Below, in pieces: positions 4,171 through 34,062 of a stretch of DNA of 38,647 bases. The position numbers and the translations under genes were made by a program. The DNA comes from an uncultured bacterium (GTDB taxonomy: Bacteria > Acidobacteriota > Thermoanaerobaculia > Multivoradales > J023), in the NCBI GenBank assembly GCA_937948815.1, contig CALFAM010000128.1:1-38647 (forward strand), in the 5' to 3' direction. The notes under the pieces were generated by a model. That model searched no databases and was not told the origin of the DNA. It worked only from the letters and a program-made list of their open reading frames with translations. Each line of letters begins with the position of its first letter. The first letter of the stretch is position 1.

Positions 4171-4458
4171 TCAGCCGAAGATGTCGGCGCCGGCGACGAT
4201 ACCGTTCGGGGGATTGATCGCCGTCGACGGCTGGGACGCGTCACTTTCGACTTGACCCGTGGCTTGGGCTGCAGCGCGATCACAGTCTGTGAGGCACACG
4301 CTCTCCTGAATCTGCTTCCACATTCCGTCAAAGAACGAGATAACACGCTCGAGTGCCCCTGCCGGTGAGGGGATGGTGGGCTCGGCGGCCATGATGGGGG
4401 TGGAGGTCGCGAGGAACAGGGCGGCGGCCATCAAAACGATCAGGCTATTCTTGTGCAT
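4171..4458 (-). CDS. Small exported protein of unknown function
   Basis: A 95-residue protein. It begins MHKNSLIVLMAAALFLATS, a typical Sec signal peptide, with a likely cleavage after the Ala-x-Ala at residues 23-25. The mature part is about 70 residues, Pro- and Ser-rich at both ends, with one amphipathic helix and a CLTDC pair of cysteines that could form a short disulfide loop. The ribosome binding site (AGGAGAAGGAAG) is strong and well placed, which argues for a real gene despite the small size. It follows the lipid kinase gene on the same strand after about 160 bases. No family was recognised. Confidence 0.7.
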   Translation of the reverse strand: MHKNSLIVLMAAALFLATSTPIMAAEPTIPSPAGALERVISFFDGMWKQIQESVCLTDCDRAAAQATGQVESDASQPSTAINPPNGIVAGADIFG

Positions 4459-4621
4459 GTCTCTTCCTTCTCCTGGTGGGTGTGTCCCGTCAAAAGCGCT
4501 GTAGGGTCAGCGCGGATTCAGATTCCATCTTGCTCAGCGTAGCGTTCCAGTGCAGTCAAAAACTACAGTTGAAATGCAGGTATTGAAGAGTTTGGCCGCA
4601 AACGCACCCTGATTTTGCCTC

Positions 4622-5623
4622 TCAGGCGGCAACCAACAAGGCGTTGCGGTGAAGCAAAAAGGTGGCGCTCGGGGCGAACAAGGACTCGCCATCGAGATCG
4701 AAAGGCGGCCTGGCGTTGCGGAGTTCGTTGCAGTCATGGCGGGAATCCTCCGGCCGGTCTCGAGCGGCAGGAATGCGTGGCTCGACCCGCAGCGCTCGGC
4801 CGCGGAAAACGTGAACAAACGGCAGCCGAACATGACTGCCGCGAAGGAACTGGGGAAGTCGCATCGGCAAGGTCCAACGCGGCACAGGCGGGACGACGAC
4901 GAGGTCCGCCAACCCATCATCAACCACCGCATCGGGCGCGACACGCATGCCGCCGCCGAACATCGGACCGTTGGCAAAGGCGGCGACGAAGAGCGGTCCG
5001 TCATGAACCAGACGATCGTCGAGCCAGAGGCGCCAAGCGTGGGGTCGATAGCGCAGCAATGTCCGGATCGTCACCCATAGATAGGTCAGAGCGCTGCGTC
5101 GGGAGACGGCGTTGACGGCCTGGCCGACGGCACCGGACATTCCGATCGAAGCGATATTGATGACAAATCGAGGGGGCGCTTGTTCCCCCGTCACGCCGAT
5201 GACATCAATCGTGCGCGGTGACGCGGTCAGGGCATGGGAGAGCGCATCGTGGGGTTCGGTCGGAATGCCCAGAGCGCGTGCAAAGTCACTTCCGGTCCCG
5301 GCAGGGACCAGGCCGAAAGCCGCGCGTGTGCCGATGCTCGAAGCCAGGAGTCGGTTGGCGACCAGGTGGGCCGTCCCGTCGCCGCCGACCGCGACCACCC
5401 GCTCGACATCGTCGGTAAGCGAACGATCGAGGGCGCCTTCGGCAGATTCCGCATCGGAAGGCATCACGATTCGGGCATGCGTGATGCTTGGGTGACTGCG
5501 CAGCACCTGTTGCCAGACGCGGCCTGCACGCCCCCCCGCCGCGGTCGGATTGACGTAGACCACGAGCCTCGCCTGTTCGGCTTCCGGTGGTGGGCTGGAC
5601 ACCCAGCCGCTTTTTTGCATCAT
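4622..5623 (-). CDS. Diacylglycerol kinase-family lipid kinase (YegS/DagK-like)
   Basis: A 333-residue protein. The ATP-binding catalytic domain is N-terminal: VNPTAAGG at about 24-31, the nucleotide-binding GGDGT at 80-84, and GTGSDFARALG at 109-119 (commonly GTxNDFAR in the family). The C-terminal beta domain has NIASIGMSGAVG and FANGPMFGGGMRVAPDA, and ends with the FDLDGE motif. The enzyme should phosphorylate a membrane lipid such as diacylglycerol or a related lipid at the cytoplasmic membrane. About 25 residues rich in Arg, Asp and Pro sit just before FDLDGE, longer than I expect for this loop; the frame is intact through them. The gene is divergent from the glycosyltransferase gene. 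Confidence 0.88.
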   Translation of the reverse strand: MMQKSGWVSSPPPEAEQARLVVYVNPTAAGGRAGRVWQQVLRSHPSITHARIVMPSDAESAEGALDRSLTDDVERVVAVGGDGTAHLVANRLLASSIGTRAAFGLVPAGTGSDFARALGIPTEPHDALSHALTASPRTIDVIGVTGEQAPPRFVINIASIGMSGAVGQAVNAVSRRSALTYLWVTIRTLLRYRPHAWRLWLDDRLVHDGPLFVAAFANGPMFGGGMRVAPDAVVDDGLADLVVVPPVPRWTLPMRLPQFLRGSHVRLPFVHVFRGRALRVEPRIPAARDRPEDSRHDCNELRNARPPFDLDGESLFAPSATFLLHRNALLVAA

Positions 5624-5649
5624 CCAATAACTCTACCGCGTCGGTTGAA

Positions 5650-5669
5650 TACGGACTCCAAGGTCCGTA
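5650..5669. promoter_or_regulatory. Inverted repeat in a divergent promoter region
   Basis: TACGGAC (5650-5656) and GTCCGTA (5663-5669) form a perfect 7-bp inverted repeat with a six-base centre. It lies 27 bases upstream of the lipid kinase start and in the leader region of the glycosyltransferase gene. On the minus strand it falls between a TTGATT and a TATTCA spaced 18 bases apart, a weak -35/-10 candidate pair, so it could be an operator. The promoter reading is inference. Confidence 0.35.
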
Positions 5670-5826
5670 AATCAACGAGATTTGCGTCCCGATCTCGATG
5701 CCTTCGCTCCCGCCCATCTCACCGAAAATCGGTTGGATTCGCGACGACTCCGGTGAGCAAGCCGGGCTAGTCGGTAAGATCCGACGAGTTCCCGAACGTT
5801 TCCCTATCGTCACCGCGAGGTCGCTC

Positions 5827-7128
5827 TTGTCCGCCCCACACACACCCGAAACCGACCCTCGTCCGCGCCAGAACCCCTCTAGCGCTTCGGTCCTCGATCA
5901 TGCCTTTGTTTCCTGGCGGGCCACACCCCTCTCCTGGCATGCCGGTGCGCTCGTCGCCCTCGTGCTGCTCGCCGTCGTGCGGTACGCCGATCTACTGGTC
6001 TACCCGGAGGCTTGGATCGACGAGTCCATCTATCAGGATGGCTTTCGAGAGCTTCAGGCGGGGCGTTCGCCATACTCGCATCCGGGCTTTTACTACCCAC
6101 CGATCTTCGCTCATGGTGGCGCGTGGTTGCTCGCCTTGATCGGCGAAGGCCCCGAACGCCTGCTCTTTCGCGGGCTCAATCTCATCGGCCTGGTCTGGAT
6201 CGCCTGGCTGGCTGCTGGGTGGATCCCGGAGCCTCGCCGAGACCCAGCGCGTGGCTTTCTCGTCCGGCTCGTGGCTGCCGCGCTCCTTGTGGTCACGCCG
6301 GTCGGTGTCTTCTTCGGCTTCAAGGTCGGCAACATCTCCTTCGCGATTGTGTCCCTGGTACTGGCGGGGGTCTGTCTATTCCCGTACCGACCTATCGTGA
6401 GCGGCGTGCTGCTCGGGCTGAGCGTCGTGCTCAAACCCGTGGCGCCCGTCGCCATTGCTTTGCTCTTTGCGCACCCGCCCGGCGCCCAAACGGCGCGAAA
6501 TGGACGTCTCGCGGCAGTCGTGGCGGGGGCGACCGCGGCCCTCTTGTCCCTGCCCTTTCTCGATGAGTTGGGGGCGCTGCTCTCCCAACACCTGTCGACT
6601 CTGGTGCAGGGGCGAATCCTCTCGAGCTACAGGGTGCTGCAGCTGCTGGGACTCCCGTTCGGTCGGGCGACGATTTTTGCCGCGCTCACCGCCCTGTTGA
6701 TGCTGCTGATGTGGCGGCGCGGCACCAGCCACAGCGCGGTTGTGGTGATCGTGGCGGGCGGCGTGGTGGCGACGGCGCCGGCGATCTGGAGCCACAGCAT
6801 GACGGTCTTCTATCCCGTGCTCGTGATGGCTGCTGTGATTGCCCACAGACACTGGTCTGCGACCCGCGCTGATTTGGCCGCCGAGCCCGTTGCTCCACGC
6901 ACCGAGCCGACGACACCCTCGGCTACGCAGGAGCGAAGCCGTTCAGCTGCGCTCGAGCTGATTCTCGTCGCGCTGGCGCTGATCGCGGTTCTCTATTTCC
7001 AGAGCGGCGGCTTCGATCATCTCGCGAGCACCACACAGTTGATGATGCTGTTGCCCTTGCTGCTCATCCCTCTCCTGTTGGTGGTCTACGTACTGCGAGT
7101 TGCCTCGCGATCGTCTCCTGAGGCGTGA
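5827..7128 (+). CDS. Polytopic membrane glycosyltransferase, GT87/DUF2029-like
   Basis: About 433 residues with roughly ten hydrophobic segments. After the first membrane segment come acidic residues (EAWIDESIYQDG) and then a GRSPYS...GFYYPPIFA stretch. This matches the GT-C fold signature of GT87/DUF2029 mannosyl- or arabinosyltransferase-like proteins, which use polyprenyl-phosphate sugars on the outer face of the membrane. A Lys-Pro (VVLKPVAPVAIALLF) stretch and a long Pro/Thr-rich loop near residue 350 follow. The start is set at TTG 5827 because GAGG lies six bases upstream; an ATG at 5698 would add 43 polar residues but has no ribosome binding site. The stop overlaps the end of rmuC by 43 bases. 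Sugar and acceptor are unknown. Confidence 0.7.
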   Translation: MSAPHTPETDPRPRQNPSSASVLDHAFVSWRATPLSWHAGALVALVLLAVVRYADLLVYPEAWIDESIYQDGFRELQAGRSPYSHPGFYYPPIFAHGGAWLLALIGEGPERLLFRGLNLIGLVWIAWLAAGWIPEPRRDPARGFLVRLVAAALLVVTPVGVFFGFKVGNISFAIVSLVLAGVCLFPYRPIVSGVLLGLSVVLKPVAPVAIALLFAHPPGAQTARNGRLAAVVAGATAALLSLPFLDELGALLSQHLSTLVQGRILSSYRVLQLLGLPFGRATIFAALTALLMLLMWRRGTSHSAVVVIVAGGVVATAPAIWSHSMTVFYPVLVMAAVIAHRHWSATRADLAAEPVAPRTEPTTPSATQERSRSAALELILVALALIAVLYFQSGGFDHLASTTQLMMLLPLLLIPLLLVVYVLRVASRSSPEA

Positions 7129-23971: not shown

Positions 23972-24048
23972 CGTGTTGACGTAGACTGGGATCGACAACC
24001 TCGAAGCTCCGCCTCGTTCCGCGCGACCCCCCATCGAAGGAGATGTTG

Positions 24049-27000
24049 ATGGCGCCCTTTTTGTACCGTGCTCCCTGGATTCTTGCTGCCACCGCGTTGG
24101 TGCTGGTGGGCTCGCGCGCGACAGCGCAGGATCGCCCCGCCCCGTCGCCGCCTTGGACGGTCGAAGGCCTCGAATCATCGTGGCAGAAGCACAAGGAGCT
24201 CGAAGCAAGCTCCCCGTTCCATGGCCTTTCATGGCGCAGCGTCGGACCGGTGGGGCAGGGAGGCCGGGTGGTCGACGTCGAGGTGGTCCCGGGCGAGCCG
24301 TACACGATGTACGTTGCCTACGCCTCCGGTGGTCTGTGGAAGACGGCCAACAACGGCGGCACCTTCGAGCCGCTATTCGACCAGCAGGGGTCGATGATCA
24401 TCGGGGATATCGCACTCGATCCGCAGGACTCCAGTGTCATCTGGGTCGGCACGGGCGAGGAGAACTCGTCTCGCTCATCCTACGGTGGCATGGGCATCTA
24501 CCGCTCGGGCGACGGCGGCGCCACCTGGGAACACAAGGGGCTCACGGGTTCCGACCGGATCGGCGAGATCCTGGTCGACCCGCGGGATTCGGATCGTGTC
24601 TATGTGGCTGTGCTCGGCAAGCTCTACACCCCGGGCGGGCCGCGCGGTATCTATCGGACCATCAACGGAGGCGAATCCTGGCAACAGGTGTTTACCGGCG
24701 CAGGCGCCTGGACTGGATTTCTCGACCTCGAGATCGATCCCAGCAACCCAGACGTGATCTACGCGTCTTCCTGGGAGCGCTCGCGCCGGCCGTGGGACTT
24801 CGTCGAGGGCGGTGATGGCAGCGGCATCTTCAAGTCGATCAACGGCGGTACGACCTGGGCCCGGCTCGAAGGCGGATTACCGCGTGGCCCACACGTCGGT
24901 CGCATCGCTCTGGCCGTGGCGCGCAGCCAACCTCAGACGCTCTACGCATCGATCGACAACCAAGAAGAGTTGCCCGAGGCGGATTGGGATCTCGGGGACA
25001 ATCCGTTGTCGGCCAATCGCTTGCGCACGATGGATCGCGAGACGTTCCTGGAGCAGGATCCGCAGCAGATCGACGCCTTTGTCCGTGGCAACGATCTCGA
25101 TACGTCGCTCGACGGCGAGAAGCTGATCGAGATGATCGAGAGCGAAGAGCTGACCATGGATGACCTCCGCGCTGAGCTCGCGGACGCCAATGCCAACCTC
25201 TTCAACACCAACATCCGGGGCCTCGAGCTGTGGCGTTCGGACGATGCTGGTGCGACCTGGCGGCGGACCCACGACGAGCCGATTCGCAACGTCGTCTTCA
25301 CCTATGGCTACTACTTCGGCAGCATGGCCGTGGCGCCGGACGACCCCGAGCGTGTCTACCTGGCGGGCGTGCCGATCATCGGTTCGACGGACGGCGGTGC
25401 GACGTTCACGTCGCTGCAGGATCCGAGTGTTCACGTCGAATACCATCCGATCTGGATTGATCCCGAGAACCCGTCTCGGATGGTCGTGGGCAACGATGGC
25501 GGGATCGACGTCAGCTATGACCGGGGCGAGACATGGTTCGGGCTCGATGCCCAGCCGGTCGGCCAGTTCTACGCCATCACCCTCGACAACGCCGACCCCT
25601 ACAATGTCTACGGTGGCCTCCAGGACAACGGCAGCCTCAAAGGGTCGTCCCAGACCCGCTGGGAGCTTGGTGAGCGCTGGCAGTTCATCGGTGGCGGCGA
25701 CGGTATGTACGTGCAGGTCGATCCCCGCAATGACGACACGCTCTACACCGGGTTCCAATTCGGTTTCTACCAGCGGGCAGGCAAGGCGGGACGCGCCACG
25801 GTGCGGCCGCGCGACGAGCTGAAGGCCCCCGCGCTGCGCTACAACTGGATGACGCCGATCCAGCTTTCGCCCCACAGTGCCGAGATCCTCTACTTCGGCA
25901 CCAATATCCTCTATCGCTCCATGGACCAAGGGGAGACCTGGACCGCGATCAGCCCCGACATGACCCATTCGGAGAAGCGTGGTGACGTTCCCTTCGGCAC
26001 CATCTCGACACTGTCCGAGTCGCCGAAGACCTTTGGGCTGATCTGGGTCGGCACCGACGACGGGCAGGTGCACGTGACCGAGGACGGCGGCGTGACCTGG
26101 CGCGATGCGGCCGCCGGTTTGCCGGCGGATCGGTGGGTCAGCCGGGTCGAAACCTCCTCCCACGCCCGCGACACGGTCTTCGTCTCGCTCAATGGTTACC
26201 GTGACGACGACATTACCCCGTACCTCTACCGCAGCGACGACCTCGGCGCGACTTGGCGCTCGATTGCCGACGGCCTGCCAGCCGAAGCGATCAACGTCGT
26301 GCGCGAGGACCCCGTGGTCGCCGACCTGCTCTACGTGGGCACGGACCGCGGCGTCTACGTGTCGTACGAAGGAGGCGGCGCGTGGCAGGCGCTCGACGCC
26401 GAGTTGCCCAACGTGCCCGTACACGACCTGGCGATCCATCGCCGCGAGCGTGAGCTGGTCGCGGGAACCCACGGGCGTTCGATCTGGATCGTCGACGTTC
26501 TGCCCGTCCAGGAGCTGGCCAGCGTCCGCGAGGAGCCTGTTCACCTCTTCCCGGTCGAGTCGGTCCAGTCGGGCCGAGGCTGGCGGTCGAGGCCGTCGCA
26601 GTGGTTCGATCGACCCGAATATCTGCCTGAGATCGACGTCCCGTTCTGGAGCGCGGCGGCGGGCACGCTGACGTTCGAGGTCCTCGATGGCGACGAACGT
26701 GTGCTCTACGCCACGGAAGTCGAGACCCGTGCCGGCGTCGGCAGCCTGACCTGGGATCTGTTGCTCGACAAGGAGCGCGCGTTGGCCGCCGAGCGCGCGC
26801 GCCTGGCCGCGGATGACCAATCCGGGGACGGTAAGGCCGCGGACGAGCCGAAAGGCAAGAAGCGCAAGAAGCAGAAAGCCGAGGAAATGGCCGAGGACGA
26901 TTCGCCCGATCGCAAGGGCCATCGCGCCAAGACGCCGTACGCCGAGGCCGAGCGTCTGGGTTGGCGCTTCTATCCCGCGCCAGGTGACTACACCTTGCGC

Positions 27001-27114
27001 CTGACGACCGCCGAGGGCGCCACGTCGGAGACCGACTTCACGATCGACGCACCGGAAGCCCGCGAGCCGCGCATGAAGAAGGAAGCGCCCATCCGCGGCC
27101 GCGACGACGACTAG
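24049..27114 (+). CDS. Exported multi-Asp-box (sortilin/BNR-like) beta-propeller protein
   Basis: 1021 residues. A signal peptide (APWILAATALVLVGSRATAQ) is followed by a two-propeller-sized region with at least nine Asp-box motifs (S/T-x-D/N-x-G-x-T-W), for example SGDGGATW, SINGGTTW, SDDAGATW, SMDQGETW and SDDLGATW. GTHGRSIWIVD closes the propeller region. A Lys-rich stretch (KGKKRKKQK) near residue 940 interrupts the C-terminal beta domain, which resumes with FYPAPGDYTLRL. Such proteins are annotated as glycosyl-hydrolase- or sortilin-like without proven activity; no catalytic residue is evident. AAGGAG six bases before ATG 24049 favours this start over ATG 24043. Confidence 0.85.
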   Translation: MAPFLYRAPWILAATALVLVGSRATAQDRPAPSPPWTVEGLESSWQKHKELEASSPFHGLSWRSVGPVGQGGRVVDVEVVPGEPYTMYVAYASGGLWKTANNGGTFEPLFDQQGSMIIGDIALDPQDSSVIWVGTGEENSSRSSYGGMGIYRSGDGGATWEHKGLTGSDRIGEILVDPRDSDRVYVAVLGKLYTPGGPRGIYRTINGGESWQQVFTGAGAWTGFLDLEIDPSNPDVIYASSWERSRRPWDFVEGGDGSGIFKSINGGTTWARLEGGLPRGPHVGRIALAVARSQPQTLYASIDNQEELPEADWDLGDNPLSANRLRTMDRETFLEQDPQQIDAFVRGNDLDTSLDGEKLIEMIESEELTMDDLRAELADANANLFNTNIRGLELWRSDDAGATWRRTHDEPIRNVVFTYGYYFGSMAVAPDDPERVYLAGVPIIGSTDGGATFTSLQDPSVHVEYHPIWIDPENPSRMVVGNDGGIDVSYDRGETWFGLDAQPVGQFYAITLDNADPYNVYGGLQDNGSLKGSSQTRWELGERWQFIGGGDGMYVQVDPRNDDTLYTGFQFGFYQRAGKAGRATVRPRDELKAPALRYNWMTPIQLSPHSAEILYFGTNILYRSMDQGETWTAISPDMTHSEKRGDVPFGTISTLSESPKTFGLIWVGTDDGQVHVTEDGGVTWRDAAAGLPADRWVSRVETSSHARDTVFVSLNGYRDDDITPYLYRSDDLGATWRSIADGLPAEAINVVREDPVVADLLYVGTDRGVYVSYEGGGAWQALDAELPNVPVHDLAIHRRERELVAGTHGRSIWIVDVLPVQELASVREEPVHLFPVESVQSGRGWRSRPSQWFDRPEYLPEIDVPFWSAAAGTLTFEVLDGDERVLYATEVETRAGVGSLTWDLLLDKERALAAERARLAADDQSGDGKAADEPKGKKRKKQKAEEMAEDDSPDRKGHRAKTPYAEAERLGWRFYPAPGDYTLRLTTAEGATSETDFTIDAPEAREPRMKKEAPIRGRDDD

Positions 27115-27474: not shown

Positions 27475-30400
27475 ATGAGACGCATTCGCTCGCTCGCCGC
27501 CCTCTGTGCCGTCGCCGCTTTGCTGATGGCGACCGCGCCAGATGCCTTCGCCCAGGGAACCCTCTACGAACACGGATCCGAGACCTACGGCTCCCTGACC
27601 GAGGCCGAAGCCGCGATGCGTGCTTCTCACGGTGCGGCAGGGCAATACCTCGAGCTTCTCAATGTCCAGAGTCTCGGCGGCGAGATAACGCGAACCTATG
27701 CAATACGGGTGCACGACATCCAAGTCGAACCCTTCTCCTGGCAGCCCTATCAGGACGTTCCATCAGCAGGGATCGAAGCGTGCGAATTCACCGGGCCGAT
27801 CGTGACGGCCAGCAATCAGAACGATTGCAACACATCCATCGACTGGACCAGCCGCCAAGAGCAGCTATTCGCCTCCCGTGACTGCTCTAGCCCGCCGCCA
27901 GAGGTCCAGATTGTCCCCGCGTTGCAGCACCACAGCGTGGGTGGTGGCTCGGCTCACGAGTTCGCGGTGAGGCAGTTCTTCGCCGGCCAGCTCGGAATTT
28001 CGATCGATCGAATCTGGGGCGTTCTCAAGACTGTCGGCCTCTATCAAAGCTACTCATTTGGGGCGGACTGTGAACAACGTTTCGAACGCGAGCCCTCCCA
28101 AGACTGTGCGCCCAACACCACCTGCTTGCCCGGGCCAAGTTTGCGACAGAGCTTGCTAGGTATCTGTCCGGAGGGTTTAACGGCTGGTAACCGAAGCCCC
28201 TTCGAACCAGGCGTCATAACGTTCTTCCCCAAGAGCTGTACGCTCGACATTCGAGATTCGATCAGGATCCTTCCGGTGCCAGGGTCGACCGACGACCCGT
28301 TCGTACAGAGCAATGGCGATTGTGTCGGCAATCCTTGCGACGTCATCAGTGGTGACAAACTCCTTTTCGAACGCATTGTCGACCTCCCCGAGCTCTCGCT
28401 CGAGCTTACGTACCACTCGCTCGCAACCACGCCGACGTACTCGCGTCTCGGACCGAACTGGCGCCACAACTACGACTCGGTCATTCTCGACACTGGGTCG
28501 AGTAGCTGGGACAAGACGCTGATCTCGCCCGCCGGCAAGATTTCCGCATTCGAGGAGGATCCAGCCACACCCGGAACCTTCCGTCCGCTCCTGGAGAGCA
28601 ATGGTCTCTTGCGGGCTGTGAGCAACACAGAATTTCACTACCTTCCAGGCGATCACCGAAAGCTGGTCTATACCAACCGCAACGGTGGCGACCGACATTT
28701 TCTCGCGTCAATCACGGATCTTCGGTCGGGCAAGGTCGTGTCCATCGATCGCAATGCCAATTGGGTGGCGACGTCGGTGAGCGCCACCAGTGGTCGGCAG
28801 CTCGACTTGGTGTACGACGAAGAAGCGGGCAACCGCCTTCAGTCCATTCGCCTGGGCGGTACGACGCTGGCAACATTTACCTATACCGAGCTCTCGCCCG
28901 CCGAACCACGACTCGACACCATCCAGTTCGTAGACGGAACGATCCGGAGGTACAGCTACTCCGATCCGAGATTCCCCTTGCACATTACCGGAATCATCGA
29001 CGAGAACGGAAATGATTTCGCAAGCTATGCCTACCATGCCGATGGCAAGGCGCGATCCAGCGAGAGGGCTGGGGGAGCGGATCGGGTCACGCTCGACTAT
29101 CAGCCTGGCGAGACCGTCGTCGGTTTGCCACTCGGCTCCGAGCGGATCTATGAGCTCTCAAGAGCCGCCTCGAACGGCCTGACGCGCCGCGATCGGATCG
29201 TCGAAGGTGACCTCGTGACGCAATTTCTCTTCGATAGCCAGCGTCCCACGCTCTCTGCAAGTGAGATTGATCCGAACGGCAACCGGACCGACGTCACGTT
29301 CGACGATTGGAACCGAACAGTACGCGTGGTCAGCGGTGTCGCGACTCCAGAGGTCGTGGTCACGGAAATGGACTGGAACGATACCCACAACCGGCCGAGT
29401 CAGGTGCGTGTTCGCGATGCGACCGATACGGTCGTACAGCAGATCGACTTTGCCTACGACGATGAGGGAAGGACTCTCTCGAGAACCGAATCGGACCCGT
29501 CTGTTGCGGACAGCAGCCGTACCACCACGTACACCTACTACGAGATGCCGGCGATCTTGGCCGGCCTGCTCCGGAACATCGATGGTCCGCGTGACATCGC
29601 GGATACGACTACGTACACCTACCGTATGCAGGACGCGCCCGCCGGGGAATACCGAGCCGGTGATCTGCACACGATCACCAATGGTGTGGGACACCAAATC
29701 GAGTATTTGGCCTACGATATTGCGGGTCGACCTGTCGAGATCCGAAGCCCCAACGGCAGTGTGACGACGCTCAGTTACCATCCCCGCGGTCAACTCGCGG
29801 GCTCGAGTCGGGCGGGCGAAATATTCGTCTATGACTATGACGATGTGGGAAATCTGGAAACCGTCACCGAGCCGGATGGCGCCACAGTCACCTACACCTA
29901 CGACGATGCCCATCGTTTGGTCGGAATTGCCGATGCTCTCGGCAATTCCGTCACGTTCATGCTCGACGCCGCAGGCAACCGTACATCCGAAGAGAGCAAA
30001 GATCCCAGCGGGGTCGTACGCCGATCCCTCGGAAGAACCTTCGACGAGCTCGGTCGGCTGCGAGCGCTCCTCGATCACAACGACATCGCGACGTCCTTGA
30101 CCTACGATCACAACGGCAACCTCGAAACCGTGACCGATCCAGTCGGGCGCTTCAGTCGCTTCACCTACGACAGCCTCGACCGTCTGGCCAAGTTCATCAG
30201 CTCGACGGGGCCAACAACCGAACGGCAGACCGAAATCGCCTACGATGTACGCGGCAGGATTCGTACCGTCACGGACCCGCGCGGAAATGCCACGACCTAC
30301 GACCGCAACGGTGTCGACAGCCTGCTCGTCCTCGACAGCCCGGACGCGGGCGTGACGGAATTCCGTTTCGACAAAGCGGGCAATCTCGTCGCGCGGACCG

Positions 30401-32145
30401 ATGCGCGCAACGAGGTTGCCACGTACACCCATGACGCAATTGGTCGCTTAACGGGTGCCGCGTACGAATCAGATAGCCGTTTCGATACCACATTCACGTA
30501 CGACGAGGGCACGAATGGTATTGAGCAGCTGACCTCGATGAGCGACGGTATCAGCGGCACCACGACCTGGTCGTTCGACGCCCACGGCAGGGTGATCCGC
30601 AAAGTTCAGACTCCGATCGGAGGTCCAGGCCTGGTGGTGAGCTATGGCTACCGTAACGGTCGGCTTTCGACGATTACCTACCCCAGTGGGACGGTGCTCG
30701 CGTACCGTTACGACGCGGCGGGCCAGCCGGCCGGGGTCGACCGCTTGGACGGTCTATCGAAGCACCGTGCCACCACACCGATCATCACTCAGGTCGACTA
30801 TCTTCCGAACGGGCCGGTTTCTCGGGTCGACTATGCGCAGTCGGTGGCCCAGGATCGTCTCTATGACCTGGACTTCGACCCTGCGGGGTTCGTGGGCGGC
30901 CTGGCGCGAACGTATCTCACGAACGCCGCGGGAGAAATCACGCGCACGTCGGTTCCGGGTCGCGCCGACCATGCTTATGCCTACGACAAGCTCGGAAGGA
31001 TCGCACGTGTCGAGAGCCCACCTGGACAATCGGTCAGTTTCTGGGACTACGACCTCAGTGGAAACCTGATCAATCGAAGCGGGCAGACCTTCTCGGTCGA
31101 CAACGATTCCAACCAGCTCACGGGAACCTTCCAGACCTCCTTTACCTACGATGCCATGGGGAACCTGTCGGAACGAACGCAGGCGCTCGTCGGTTCGCTG
31201 CAGATGACCTATGGGCCGAACCAGCGTCTGGTTCACTTTGCACGGAACGGGCACTTTACGACGGCTGCCTATCGCTACAACGGTTTTGGGCAACGTGTCG
31301 GGAAGACGGTCACCACGCTCGGCATCGCAGGCAATGGAATCGAGACCAAGCAATTCCTCTATGACGAAAGCGAGAGACTCCTGGGTGAGTACGACGAGCA
31401 AGGGCGCCTCATCATGGAGTATCACTGGCTGGGGGACTTGCTGGTCGGCCTTCACCAGCCGGGAGCGTTCTTCCAGGTCTACACCGATCACCTGGGTACG
31501 CCACGGGAGGTTCGTGACAAGAGCAATGTCGTGGTCTGGAAATGGGAGAGTCTGGCCCAGCCCTATGGCCGGAGTGTCCCCAATGCCGATCCGGACCGGG
31601 ATGGCAAGACCTTCACGTTGAATCTGCGCTTTCCCGGCCAGTACTTCGACGCGGAGAGCGGTTTTCACTACAACTACTTCCGCGACTACGATCCGGTGAC
31701 CGGACGCTACATCCAGAGTGATCCCATTGGCCTTGCCGGTGGCATCAACCCATACGCCTATGCGGAGCTCAATCCGCTCGGGCTCATCGATCGTCGTGGT
31801 CTCCGCGGAGGCGGAGCGAGTACGACGGCTCGTCCCGGTGGAACGTTCGGAGGGCCGGGTAGGTTACGCATCGACCGCAAGCGGTTCACAGATGGCGTGG
31901 CGGATCTGCTCGACTCCTCGCTTTGTGACTTCGATCCGTCGCGTTGCTTCAAGATCGGCTGCCTGACGTTCGAGTGCACGCCCATTCCCGCACCGATCGT
32001 TTGCGCCATTGATGGGTCGACGGATCCATTCTTGCTCGGCGTCGGGGGCACACCGATCCTGACCGGTCCGAATACCGACCTGGGCATGTCATTCTTTACC
32101 GAGGATGCAGAGTGTCGGTGTGTCCGCGGGACATTCGTCCAGTAG
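27475..32145 (+). CDS. Exported RHS/YD-repeat protein with a unique cysteine-rich C-terminus
   Basis: 1556 residues. A signal peptide (residues 1-26, cleavage after AFA) is followed by a Cys-containing N-terminal part to about 270. A DUF6531-like stretch follows (CDVISGDKLLFERIVDLPELSLELTYHS, GPNWRHNYDS), then about 1000 residues of YD repeats (for example YDDVGNLETVTEPDG, YDSLDRLAKF, YDAMGNLSERT). The RHS-associated core YFDAESGFHYNYFRDYDPVTGRYIQSDPIGLAGGINPYAYAELNPLGLIDRRG ends near residue 1443. The last 113 residues carry seven Cys and match nothing I know. RHS shells enclose or display variable tails, often toxins. No immunity-like gene follows. AAAGGA before ATG 27475 fixes the start. 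Confidence 0.9.
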   Translation: MRRIRSLAALCAVAALLMATAPDAFAQGTLYEHGSETYGSLTEAEAAMRASHGAAGQYLELLNVQSLGGEITRTYAIRVHDIQVEPFSWQPYQDVPSAGIEACEFTGPIVTASNQNDCNTSIDWTSRQEQLFASRDCSSPPPEVQIVPALQHHSVGGGSAHEFAVRQFFAGQLGISIDRIWGVLKTVGLYQSYSFGADCEQRFEREPSQDCAPNTTCLPGPSLRQSLLGICPEGLTAGNRSPFEPGVITFFPKSCTLDIRDSIRILPVPGSTDDPFVQSNGDCVGNPCDVISGDKLLFERIVDLPELSLELTYHSLATTPTYSRLGPNWRHNYDSVILDTGSSSWDKTLISPAGKISAFEEDPATPGTFRPLLESNGLLRAVSNTEFHYLPGDHRKLVYTNRNGGDRHFLASITDLRSGKVVSIDRNANWVATSVSATSGRQLDLVYDEEAGNRLQSIRLGGTTLATFTYTELSPAEPRLDTIQFVDGTIRRYSYSDPRFPLHITGIIDENGNDFASYAYHADGKARSSERAGGADRVTLDYQPGETVVGLPLGSERIYELSRAASNGLTRRDRIVEGDLVTQFLFDSQRPTLSASEIDPNGNRTDVTFDDWNRTVRVVSGVATPEVVVTEMDWNDTHNRPSQVRVRDATDTVVQQIDFAYDDEGRTLSRTESDPSVADSSRTTTYTYYEMPAILAGLLRNIDGPRDIADTTTYTYRMQDAPAGEYRAGDLHTITNGVGHQIEYLAYDIAGRPVEIRSPNGSVTTLSYHPRGQLAGSSRAGEIFVYDYDDVGNLETVTEPDGATVTYTYDDAHRLVGIADALGNSVTFMLDAAGNRTSEESKDPSGVVRRSLGRTFDELGRLRALLDHNDIATSLTYDHNGNLETVTDPVGRFSRFTYDSLDRLAKFISSTGPTTERQTEIAYDVRGRIRTVTDPRGNATTYDRNGVDSLLVLDSPDAGVTEFRFDKAGNLVARTDARNEVATYTHDAIGRLTGAAYESDSRFDTTFTYDEGTNGIEQLTSMSDGISGTTTWSFDAHGRVIRKVQTPIGGPGLVVSYGYRNGRLSTITYPSGTVLAYRYDAAGQPAGVDRLDGLSKHRATTPIITQVDYLPNGPVSRVDYAQSVAQDRLYDLDFDPAGFVGGLARTYLTNAAGEITRTSVPGRADHAYAYDKLGRIARVESPPGQSVSFWDYDLSGNLINRSGQTFSVDNDSNQLTGTFQTSFTYDAMGNLSERTQALVGSLQMTYGPNQRLVHFARNGHFTTAAYRYNGFGQRVGKTVTTLGIAGNGIETKQFLYDESERLLGEYDEQGRLIMEYHWLGDLLVGLHQPGAFFQVYTDHLGTPREVRDKSNVVVWKWESLAQPYGRSVPNADPDRDGKTFTLNLRFPGQYFDAESGFHYNYFRDYDPVTGRYIQSDPIGLAGGINPYAYAELNPLGLIDRRGLRGGGASTTARPGGTFGGPGRLRIDRKRFTDGVADLLDSSLCDFDPSRCFKIGCLTFECTPIPAPIVCAIDGSTDPFLLGVGGTPILTGPNTDLGMSFFTEDAECRCVRGTFVQ

Positions 32146-32165
32146 GCGCAAGCTTGCGCATCCAG

Positions 32166-32195
32166 CCCGAGCGGCGTGCGAATCAGCCGCTCGGG
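32166..32195. terminator. Bidirectional terminator hairpin between the convergent RHS and kinase genes
   Basis: CCCGAGCGGC (32166-32175) and GCCGCTCGGG (32186-32195) form a perfect 10-bp stem with a ten-base loop. It lies in the 51 bases between the two stops. TTCAAT follows on the plus strand, a weak U-tract. Placement supports a shared terminator. Confidence 0.7.
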
Positions 32196-32196
32196 T

Positions 32197-34062
32197 TCAA
32201 TCGGTGAGGTCGCTGATCACCAAAGGGCCGGTCTTGTGACTGATCGGCTCGTCTTTCACCGGGATGCGGGCCACGATGATCGTGCCCGCGCCCGGTGCGC
32301 AGAAGACCGTGAGCTCGCCGCCGCATAGGTGGGCACGCTCACGCATGCCGGTCATGCCGACCGAGCGGCCGGTGCCGAGCTCGGCTTCGGAGATGCCCTT
32401 GCCATTGTCCGCGATGCGTAGCACGAGCATCCCTTCACGCTGAGTCAGCTCGATCTCGACCGATGTCGCGTCGGCGTGGCGGGCGACATTGGTCAGTGCT
32501 TCCTGAACGATCCGAAAGATGTGCGTTTCACGGTCGAGGCTGAGCCGGATGCGGCTCAATTCACTGATGAAGCGGCACTCGATGTCGATCTTGCGCGCGA
32601 AGTCCTCAGCGTGAAAGCGGATGGCGGGAAGCAGGCCGAGATGGGCGGTCGGGTTCGGCTGCAGGTCACGCGCGATGCGGCGTACGGTATCGGTCGTCGC
32701 ATGTACCAGGTCCACGGCTGTCTCGAGACTCGCCCCGGCGTTGGCGTCGAGACTGACCCGGGCGTTCTTGAGCACCGCCATGTGAAGCTTGAGGGCCGTG
32801 AGCTGCTGTCCAAGTTGGTCGTGAATCTCGCGGGCGATGTCGGCGCGCTCTTCGTCTCGAACCGTCTGAAGATGCTGTGCCAGGGAGCGGAGCTCTTCGC
32901 GCGACGCGCGCAGGGCTTCTTCGCCTTTCTCGCGCTCCGTGATGTCCTCGACGATGCACAGGAGCTGGCGAACGCCGCTGTCACTGCCGCGCGCGAAGAC
33001 GATGTGGCGCGCGAGCAGGATCCTCAGGTTGCCTGTGCGGTCGGGCGTGCGGTGCTTGGTGGTCGTGACGTTGTCGCGCGCCAGGCGAGTCATCAAGGCG
33101 GCCATGCCGCCGGCTTCTTCGTCGTGGAGGAGGAAGCGCAGGAGATTGGGGTCGAAGCCGCTTTCGCCGGGCTGCCAGCCGAGCATGCGCTCCAGCTTGC
33201 GATTCGAGTACACCTCCCGTTGGCTGTCGACGTCGAGCAAGCAGATGTGCTCGGGTACCGTCTCGGTGATCTGCTCTTGCAGGCGCTGCGCCTGACGCAG
33301 GCGCTTCTCGAGCTCCTTGCGTGCCGTGATGTCCTGGCCGATGGCGAGAATGCCCGGAACACCGTCCGCGTTGTCCAGGCGTGCCATGTTCCAGAGCACG
33401 GTCTTGGGCGATGCATTGCGCACCAGGATGGTGCTTTCAAGCCCTTCCTTGGCGTCGCCGCCGAGCACATCGTCGAAGGTCGCGCGCACCTGAGCGTGAA
33501 GCTCCTGCGGCTGGAACATGTCGATGTAGCTGCGGCCGAGGACCTCCGCGCGTCGGTAGCCGTGCAGCTCCTCGGCCGGTGGATTCCAGTCCTGGATGCG
33601 GAAATCCTCGGTCAGGTAGACGATCACGCTGCTCGTATTCTTGAGCAGGGTCTTGTAGCGGTCGTCGCGGGTGGCGAGCGCCTCCATGAGGCACTGGCCG
33701 AGCAGGCGATGCAGAAGAATGATCAGCGCATCGAGATTGTCGGCTGGCGCAACATGTAGCCAGTTGCGCCGATCTCCGGGCGCTTCGCCGGCGATCGGCG
33801 CCAGCAAGATCAACCGTAGGGTCGGGGTCGCCTGTCGCAGGATGTGCGCGATGTCGAGGGCGAGGCCGCCGCCGGGGGGCGGTCCCACCACCGCGACGCT
33901 CGACCGATGCCAGGCCAGGATGATCAGGGCTTCGTCGAGATCGTTGCAGACGATCGCGTCCAGATCCTCGTCGGCGAAGCGACGCAGGATGGCCTCACGG
34001 CGGGCTGGGTCCGACTCGACGAGTAGGACGCTGAAGGGTATGGATGTGTGCGGCGTGAGCAC
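32197..34062 (-). CDS. PAS sensor histidine kinase (NarL/HisKA_3 type) with degenerate receiver domain
   Basis: 621 residues, apparently soluble. Residues about 10-120 have a receiver-like fold (FSVLLVESDPARREAILRRF, LDEALIIL), but the phosphoacceptor Asp position reads VAVVGPPPG, with Gly60 in its place, and the switch Lys is absent. Two PAS domains follow at about 130-260 (YKTLLKNTSSVIVYLTEDFRIQDWN) and 270-385. The kinase core has REIHDQLGQQLTALKLHM (HisKA_3) with the phosphoacceptor His, then EALTNVARHADA (N box), IADNGKGI and GMTGMRERA. Such kinases partner with NarL-type regulators, but none is encoded in this window. The protein faces the RHS gene. Confidence 0.9.
   Translation of the reverse strand: MLTPHTSIPFSVLLVESDPARREAILRRFADEDLDAIVCNDLDEALIILAWHRSSVAVVGPPPGGGLALDIAHILRQATPTLRLILLAPIAGEAPGDRRNWLHVAPADNLDALIILLHRLLGQCLMEALATRDDRYKTLLKNTSSVIVYLTEDFRIQDWNPPAEELHGYRRAEVLGRSYIDMFQPQELHAQVRATFDDVLGGDAKEGLESTILVRNASPKTVLWNMARLDNADGVPGILAIGQDITARKELEKRLRQAQRLQEQITETVPEHICLLDVDSQREVYSNRKLERMLGWQPGESGFDPNLLRFLLHDEEAGGMAALMTRLARDNVTTTKHRTPDRTGNLRILLARHIVFARGSDSGVRQLLCIVEDITEREKGEEALRASREELRSLAQHLQTVRDEERADIAREIHDQLGQQLTALKLHMAVLKNARVSLDANAGASLETAVDLVHATTDTVRRIARDLQPNPTAHLGLLPAIRFHAEDFARKIDIECRFISELSRIRLSLDRETHIFRIVQEALTNVARHADATSVEIELTQREGMLVLRIADNGKGISEAELGTGRSVGMTGMRERAHLCGGELTVFCAPGAGTIIVARIPVKDEPISHKTGPLVISDLTD

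What the first reader, a model, noticed from the sequence alone, without database searches (positions are those of the whole stretch)
31804..32142. RHS protein carries a private seven-cysteine C-terminal tail with no immunity gene next to it
Seen: after the conserved RHS core and its NPLGLID signature, the last 113 residues change to a Gly-rich linker and a Cys-rich domain (seven Cys, with four spaced 4-6 residues apart). Known: RHS cores are followed by exchangeable tails, often toxins with an immunity gene downstream. Here the next gene is on the other strand, 51 bases away. Inference: the tail may be a surface-adhesion or disulfide-stabilised effector domain, working without immunity because it is exported by its signal peptide.
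Basis: partly seen in the sequence, partly recalled or inferred. Interest (0 to 1): 0.55.

Follow-up and report, generated by a model that had tools for sequence, protein, structure and literature searches.

The report
Orphan cysteine-rich tail of RHS protein
A large exported bacterial shell protein of a known toxin-carrying kind ends in a small cysteine-rich piece with no recognisable relatives; most likely it is a cargo cut loose and held inside the shell, one more of many one-off tails, and its function is not known.

Summary
The RHS gene (window 27475-32145, +) ends in 113 residues with a Gly-rich linker and seven Cys. The next gene, a histidine kinase, is convergent 51 bases away, so no immunity gene lies between. 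The tail had no credible relative in any collection searched (family libraries, PDB, plasmids, phages, viral and GTDB contigs, genomes of the class and phylum). The shell end is ordinary: it matches the C-terminal plug of solved Rhs structures, and both aspartates of the published autoprotease are present (DPIGL-18-DRRGL). I therefore read the tail as a self-cleaved, encapsulated cargo rather than a displayed adhesin; toxicity is inferred. Two reasons in the finding weaken: a signal peptide is common here (23 of 38 RHS proteins, crude test), and an opposite-strand neighbour is not rare (13 of 62 tails, this one included). Tails around it differ widely (143 complete tails), so this is one more exchangeable RHS tail. 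It is unusual in Cys density (second of 143) and placement: ten in the N-terminal domain, seven in the tail, none in the 1,123-residue shell. This permits, but does not show, a plug-to-cargo disulfide like that published for a Bacillus teneurin-like protein.

The parts
27475..32145 (+). RHS / YD-repeat gene, 1,556 aa from the likely ATG
   Evidence: ATG with an AAAGGA-like site upstream; ORF; RHS_repeat PF05593 E 6.9e-49, DUF6531; Rhs_assc_core TIGR03696 E 3.7e-22
27475..27555 (+). signal-peptide-like N-terminus, residues 1-27, AFA-Q cleavage site by eye
   Evidence: hydrophobic windows at 4-8; rule-based test positive; no SignalP available
27556..28407 (+). N-terminal domain with ten Cys, itself without a clear relative
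   Evidence: Cys counts; 2 of 59 genomes incl. own at E<=0.01, the other E 0.004; no PDB match at E<=1
28408..31803 (+). RHS/YD shell, no Cys
31720..31803 (+). autoprotease end of the shell: DPIGL, 18 residues, DRRGL; predicted cut after the final Leu
   Evidence: aligned to solved Rhs core 8qjd, both Asp aligned; motif from PMC8765631, PMC8636562, PMC6425310
31804..32142 (+). 113-residue orphan tail: Gly-rich linker, then seven-Cys part; 11.8 kDa, pI 4.9, no His
32146..32196 (.). 51-base gap with no gene
32197..34062 (-). PAS / HisKA_3 histidine kinase, convergent neighbour, not an immunity gene

Best explanation
The tail is the variable cargo of an exported RHS protein. The protein crosses the inner membrane by Sec and folds into a hollow YD-repeat shell. 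Its C-terminal plug cuts the chain after DRRGL, and the 11.8-kDa tail stays inside until the shell opens near another cell. The seven Cys form disulfides once exported, so the tail should act outside a cytoplasm (periplasm, membrane or surface), where it is most likely a small antagonistic effector. Shown: gene anatomy, an intact autoprotease motif, Cys placement, absence of relatives and of an adjacent immunity gene. Inferred: export, cleavage, enclosure, disulfides. Guess: toxicity.
For: RHS_repeat, DUF6531 and Rhs_assc_core matches. The shell end aligns to solved Rhs cores with both Asp kept. Mutating either catalytic Asp stops cleavage in RhsA (D1324, D1346), as does mutating Asp-1338 in Rhs1 (PMC8765631, PMC8636562; passages). 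The Asp before the cut is present in 143 of 143 cores and the following Pro in 133, so the Arg here is a minority state found in 3 of 143 (cores were found by a profile, so conservation is biased upwards). No T6SS sheath gene in the own genome (of 7 genomes searched, own included, only G002 has it), consistent with Sec export. Tails of relatives differ widely. The nearest relative of the shell (36-38% identity) ends in a Golvesin_C domain instead. Published precedent for small cargo: a Bacillus teneurin-like protein with a 92-residue tail inside the shell, growth-inhibiting only with a signal peptide (PMC13018210, passages).
Against: No activity, structure or homologue supports toxicity. AlphaFold2 on the tail alone gave pLDDT 31, no information. 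There is no immunity gene, unlike almost all published teneurin-like loci. The usual DPxGL is DRRGL here, and cleavage with Arg after the Asp was not tested. The seventh Cys is unpaired within the tail. Codon adaptation of the tail is weaker than in the core. The nearest shell relative is a broken gene lacking the shell end.
Confidence: 0.5

Rival explanations
1. Adhesin or binding domain: the tail is displayed, anchoring or attaching the exported shell, and needs no immunity.
For: Cys-rich and signal-peptide-like start; no immunity gene; the nearest shell relative (G004:C58) ends in Golvesin_C, E 1.7e-7, 31.8 bits against a cut-off of 31.6.
Against: That relative lacks the Rhs_assc_core end and is broken across frames, while here the autoprotease aspartates are kept, which predicts cutting and enclosure.
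Confidence: 0.2
2. Metal-binding rather than disulfide domain: Cys 41/48/53/58 hold zinc and the tail acts in a cytoplasm.
For: Four closely spaced Cys; weak zf-CCHC_3 match E 0.1, below cut-off.
Against: No His in the tail, no match above cut-off, signal-peptide-like start of the protein.
Confidence: 0.1
3. Remnant: the original tail was lost or recombined and the present one is non-functional sequence read in frame.
For: No homologue in anything searched; no immunity gene; plain codon score near zero; tail shorter than most (5 of 143 are 113 aa or less, this one included).
Against: Synonymous codon use beats composition-matched recodings (0.35% reach it) and most wrong-frame segments; the Cys excess is not expected of random sequence.
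Confidence: 0.2

Closest known systems
Bacterial teneurin-like proteins (B. inaquosorum BiTLP; PMC13018210)
   Same: Exported YD shell, Asp autoprotease motif, small polymorphic C-terminal domain (92 aa in BiTLP), Cys in both plug and cargo.
   Different: No FN-plug, NHL or TTR domain was recognised here (at E<=1); no immunity gene downstream; cargo without homologue; BiTLP's plug-cargo disulfide is solved, here only possible.
T6SS Rhs effectors (RhsA, Rhs1/Tre23, Tse5, Tse15)
   Same: Shell and C-terminal aspartyl-protease plug; best PDB sequence matches.
   Different: Signal-peptide-like start and no PAAR match; no T6SS sheath in the own genome.
RHS proteins of relatives up to the same order (143 complete tails, own included)
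   Same: Rhs_assc_core end followed by a variable tail; many with a signal peptide.
   Different: This tail matches none of the 87 compared directly (best E 0.047 to L104); ten N-terminal Cys and a Cys-free shell are extremes among 38 compared.

Membership tests
RHS / YD-repeat polymorphic proteins | YD/RHS repeats | tested here: met
   PF05593 E 6.9e-49, 11 stretches
RHS / YD-repeat polymorphic proteins | RHS-associated core at the C-terminal end of the shell | tested here: met
   TIGR03696 78.6 bits over cut-off 32.5
RHS / YD-repeat polymorphic proteins | two catalytic Asp of the autoprotease | tested here: met
   aligned; cleavage itself not testable
RHS / YD-repeat polymorphic proteins | variable C-terminal tail differing between loci | tested here: met
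   143 complete tails read; this one without convincing match among the 87 compared
Polymorphic toxin with immunity pair | immunity gene next to the tail | tested here: not met
   51-base gap, convergent kinase
Polymorphic toxin with immunity pair | known toxin domain in the tail | tested here: not met
   no match beyond chance
Polymorphic toxin with immunity pair | tail is toxic | not testable with these tools
   needs an expression assay
Teneurin-like protein | FN-plug, NHL propeller and TTR before the shell | tested here: inconclusive
   Pfam scan at E<=1 shows none; best stretch to PDB teneurin-like chains starts at residue 1064 of P0001; no structure predicted
T6SS Rhs effector | PAAR domain and a T6SS in the genome | tested here: not met
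   no PAAR match, no TssC/VipB in G000, which is 82% complete

The most novel reading that the evidence does not exclude
A disulfide-tethered cargo. All 17 Cys of the mature protein lie in the N-terminal plug-side domain (10) and in the tail (7), none in the 1,123-residue shell, and the tail count is odd. One or more plug-to-cargo disulfides would keep the cut tail attached and let it out only where the bond is reduced or the plug is pulled, a self-protection that replaces an immunity protein. A comparison of 38 RHS proteins does not show this as a general rule (tail against N-terminal Cys count, rho 0.01), so it would be special to this protein.
Probability: 0.12. Interest if true: 0.55.

Novelty: new member of a known kind. 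Interest (0 to 1): 0.27.

Why it matters
If the cargo acts without an immunity partner, it bears on how exported RHS shells protect their makers. Otherwise it adds one orphan tail to a very diverse pool. The wider use is the baseline obtained here: 143 RHS tails from one order of bacteria, their Cys content, and (for 62) how often the next frame is on the opposite strand.

Tried and rejected
Tail searches with no credible result: relatives (20 of 59 genomes at E<=1 including own), class (12 of 148 at E<=0.05 including own); I read 13 of the hits of these two calls, which looked like off-frame, low-complexity or unrelated sequence, and left the rest unread. Phylum: 3 of 396 at E<=0.01 including own. 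The two others, E 5.5e-6 and 0.0086, contain stops. The first lies in another frame of what I recognise by eye as MutS; the second lies outside the long open frame of its locus. They are the only hits again (1 of 38; 1 of 162). Plasmids: 0 records at E<=1 and 9 of 72,556 at E<=10, best E about 4. Phages, viral contigs and genome contigs: none. A scan of genome contigs with the whole RHS protein gave two Xenorhabdus RHS loci at 26-27% identity, not followed up. Fold of the tail alone: pLDDT 31, so no fold search was made.

Plug-cargo disulfide as a general rule: not supported. I fetched 40 RHS genes, chosen by tail Cys count and frame length, and added the own protein; three were dropped as 5'-open or under 1,200 aa, leaving 38. 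Tail Cys against N-terminal Cys count gave rho 0.01, P 0.93; by density rho 0.39, P 0.016; against shell Cys rho -0.41, P 0.011; without own (37), count rho -0.07, P 0.68.

Empty-site or synteny test: the kinase orthologue in the one same-genus genome has no RHS hit on its 10-kb contig, and the upstream Vps10-type gene's contig ends 13 bases after it. No conserved neighbourhood was found, so insertion is neither shown nor excluded.

Whether the motif C-x2-[DN]-P-x2-C, shared with four other tails, means homology: left open.

Full report
Observation. The 113 residues at 31804-32142 are as described. The gene is best started at ATG 27475, giving 1,556 residues: a signal-peptide-like start, an N-terminal domain, a shell of RHS repeats and the tail. 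Cys counts: one in the signal peptide, ten in the N-terminal domain, none in the shell, seven in the tail. The convergent histidine kinase ends 51 bases after the stop, so nothing can serve as an adjacent immunity gene.

Is the tail real? Synonymous codon use in the tail exceeds composition-matched recodings (0.35% of 2,000 reach it) and most wrong-frame segments (1.7% of 346), but sits at the 10th percentile of 173 genuine segments. A plain codon score falls from 0.40 per codon in the end of the core to 0.055 in the tail. I take it as coding, with moderate certainty.

Is it private? Within the searches made, yes. No family library matched it above a cut-off, no PDB chain at E below 1, no plasmid or phage at E<=1, nothing confirmed in genome contigs or viral contigs. 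Genome searches found the own copy plus hits I take for chance (one search shows the two best of the phylum search to be frames with stops, one within what I recognise by eye as MutS). Among 87 other RHS tails compared directly, the best match was E 0.047. The 60 tails fetched later were compared only for Cys content and a motif.

Tails in relatives. Rhs_assc_core occurs in 34 of 59 genomes, own included (the listing of matches was cut). I read 149 of the listed matches; 143 gave complete tails (one refetched duplicate, L105, was not counted). Lengths run from 71 to 438, median 207; 59 have no Cys and 113 have at most two. Three have seven or more Cys, this one among them. It has the second highest Cys density after L106 (9 of 78). 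For 62 of the first 89 tails with enough sequence after the stop, a codon-score heuristic put the best next frame on the same strand in 29, on the opposite strand in 13 (this one included) and weak in 20. An absent adjacent immunity gene is therefore not remarkable in this group.

How it should work. The shell end aligns to solved Rhs cores, 8qjd best and 7q97 (which I take to be RhsA) best, with both aspartates of the autoprotease in place. Published work shows that these aspartates cut the tail off and that the tail lies in the shell (PMC8765631 and PMC8636562, passages; PMC6425310, section 5). That last paper states the site as DxxGx, which DRRGL meets. In 143 cores the Asp is always present and the next residue is Pro in 133. 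Cleavage and enclosure are thus predicted, not shown. The signal-peptide-like start and the missing T6SS sheath gene (genome 82% complete) point to Sec export. Among 38 RHS proteins including this one, 23 scored a signal peptide by a crude rule, so export is the habit of the group and cannot by itself explain a missing immunity gene.

Disulfides. A solved teneurin-like protein has a bond between a Cys in its 92-residue cargo and one in its N-terminal plug, and its cargo inhibited growth only with a signal peptide (PMC13018210, passages). Here the Cys distribution would allow such a bond, and the protein is extreme among the 38 in N-terminal Cys (10; next 7) and shell Cys (0; others at least 1). 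There is no general correlation of tail and N-terminal Cys counts, so this remains the bold reading.

Tail exchange. The closest shell relative, in one genome of the family (38% over 623-1353 of P0001), ends in a Golvesin_C domain and lacks the shell's autoprotease end; its gene is split over frames. The same-genus genome has two Rhs_assc_core matches but no match to this protein at E<=1e-10. This fits the known separate evolution of shell and tail.

Literature. Listings named no paper about cysteine-rich RHS tails; the library is limited to open-licence papers. Zhang et al. [quoted passage not shown]

Verdict. A real, private, Cys-rich RHS tail; a new member of a known kind. Its interest rests on the possibility of a tethered cargo without immunity, which needs experiments.

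Noticed in passing
L087, L090, L159, L209 (tails) and window 31924-31947: C-x2-[DN]-P-x2-C, with Leu-Leu or Leu-Ile shortly before it, recurs in four of 142 other RHS tails (three of them one family) against 0.019 expected from shuffles; motif chosen after seeing it.
   Followed up: partly
L106 (G006:C281:5469-5699 and onward): A second RHS-core piece about 3.2 kb after another RHS core on the same contig (L068) carries a 78-residue tail with nine Cys, like an orphan tail module.
   Followed up: no
L247 about 4222-6855 (G004:C58): The nearest shell relative ends in a Golvesin_C domain in place of the autoprotease end, in a gene split over frames.
   Followed up: partly
G012:C3 near 400557 (L197): An Rhs_assc_core match lies in an open frame listed as 27,346 residues.
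   Followed up: no
G000:C252 (L249): A second RHS-repeat protein of the own genome, frame of 3,202 residues, lies at the end of its contig, so its tail cannot be read.
   Followed up: no
window 27556-28407: The N-terminal ten-Cys domain is also nearly without relatives: 2 of 59 genomes including own at E<=0.01.
   Followed up: partly
window 24043-27114: A Sortilin-Vps10/BNR-repeat protein precedes the RHS gene; it matches in 6 of 7 genomes searched, own included. The three relatives whose contigs could be read on had no RHS hit beside it.
   Followed up: partly
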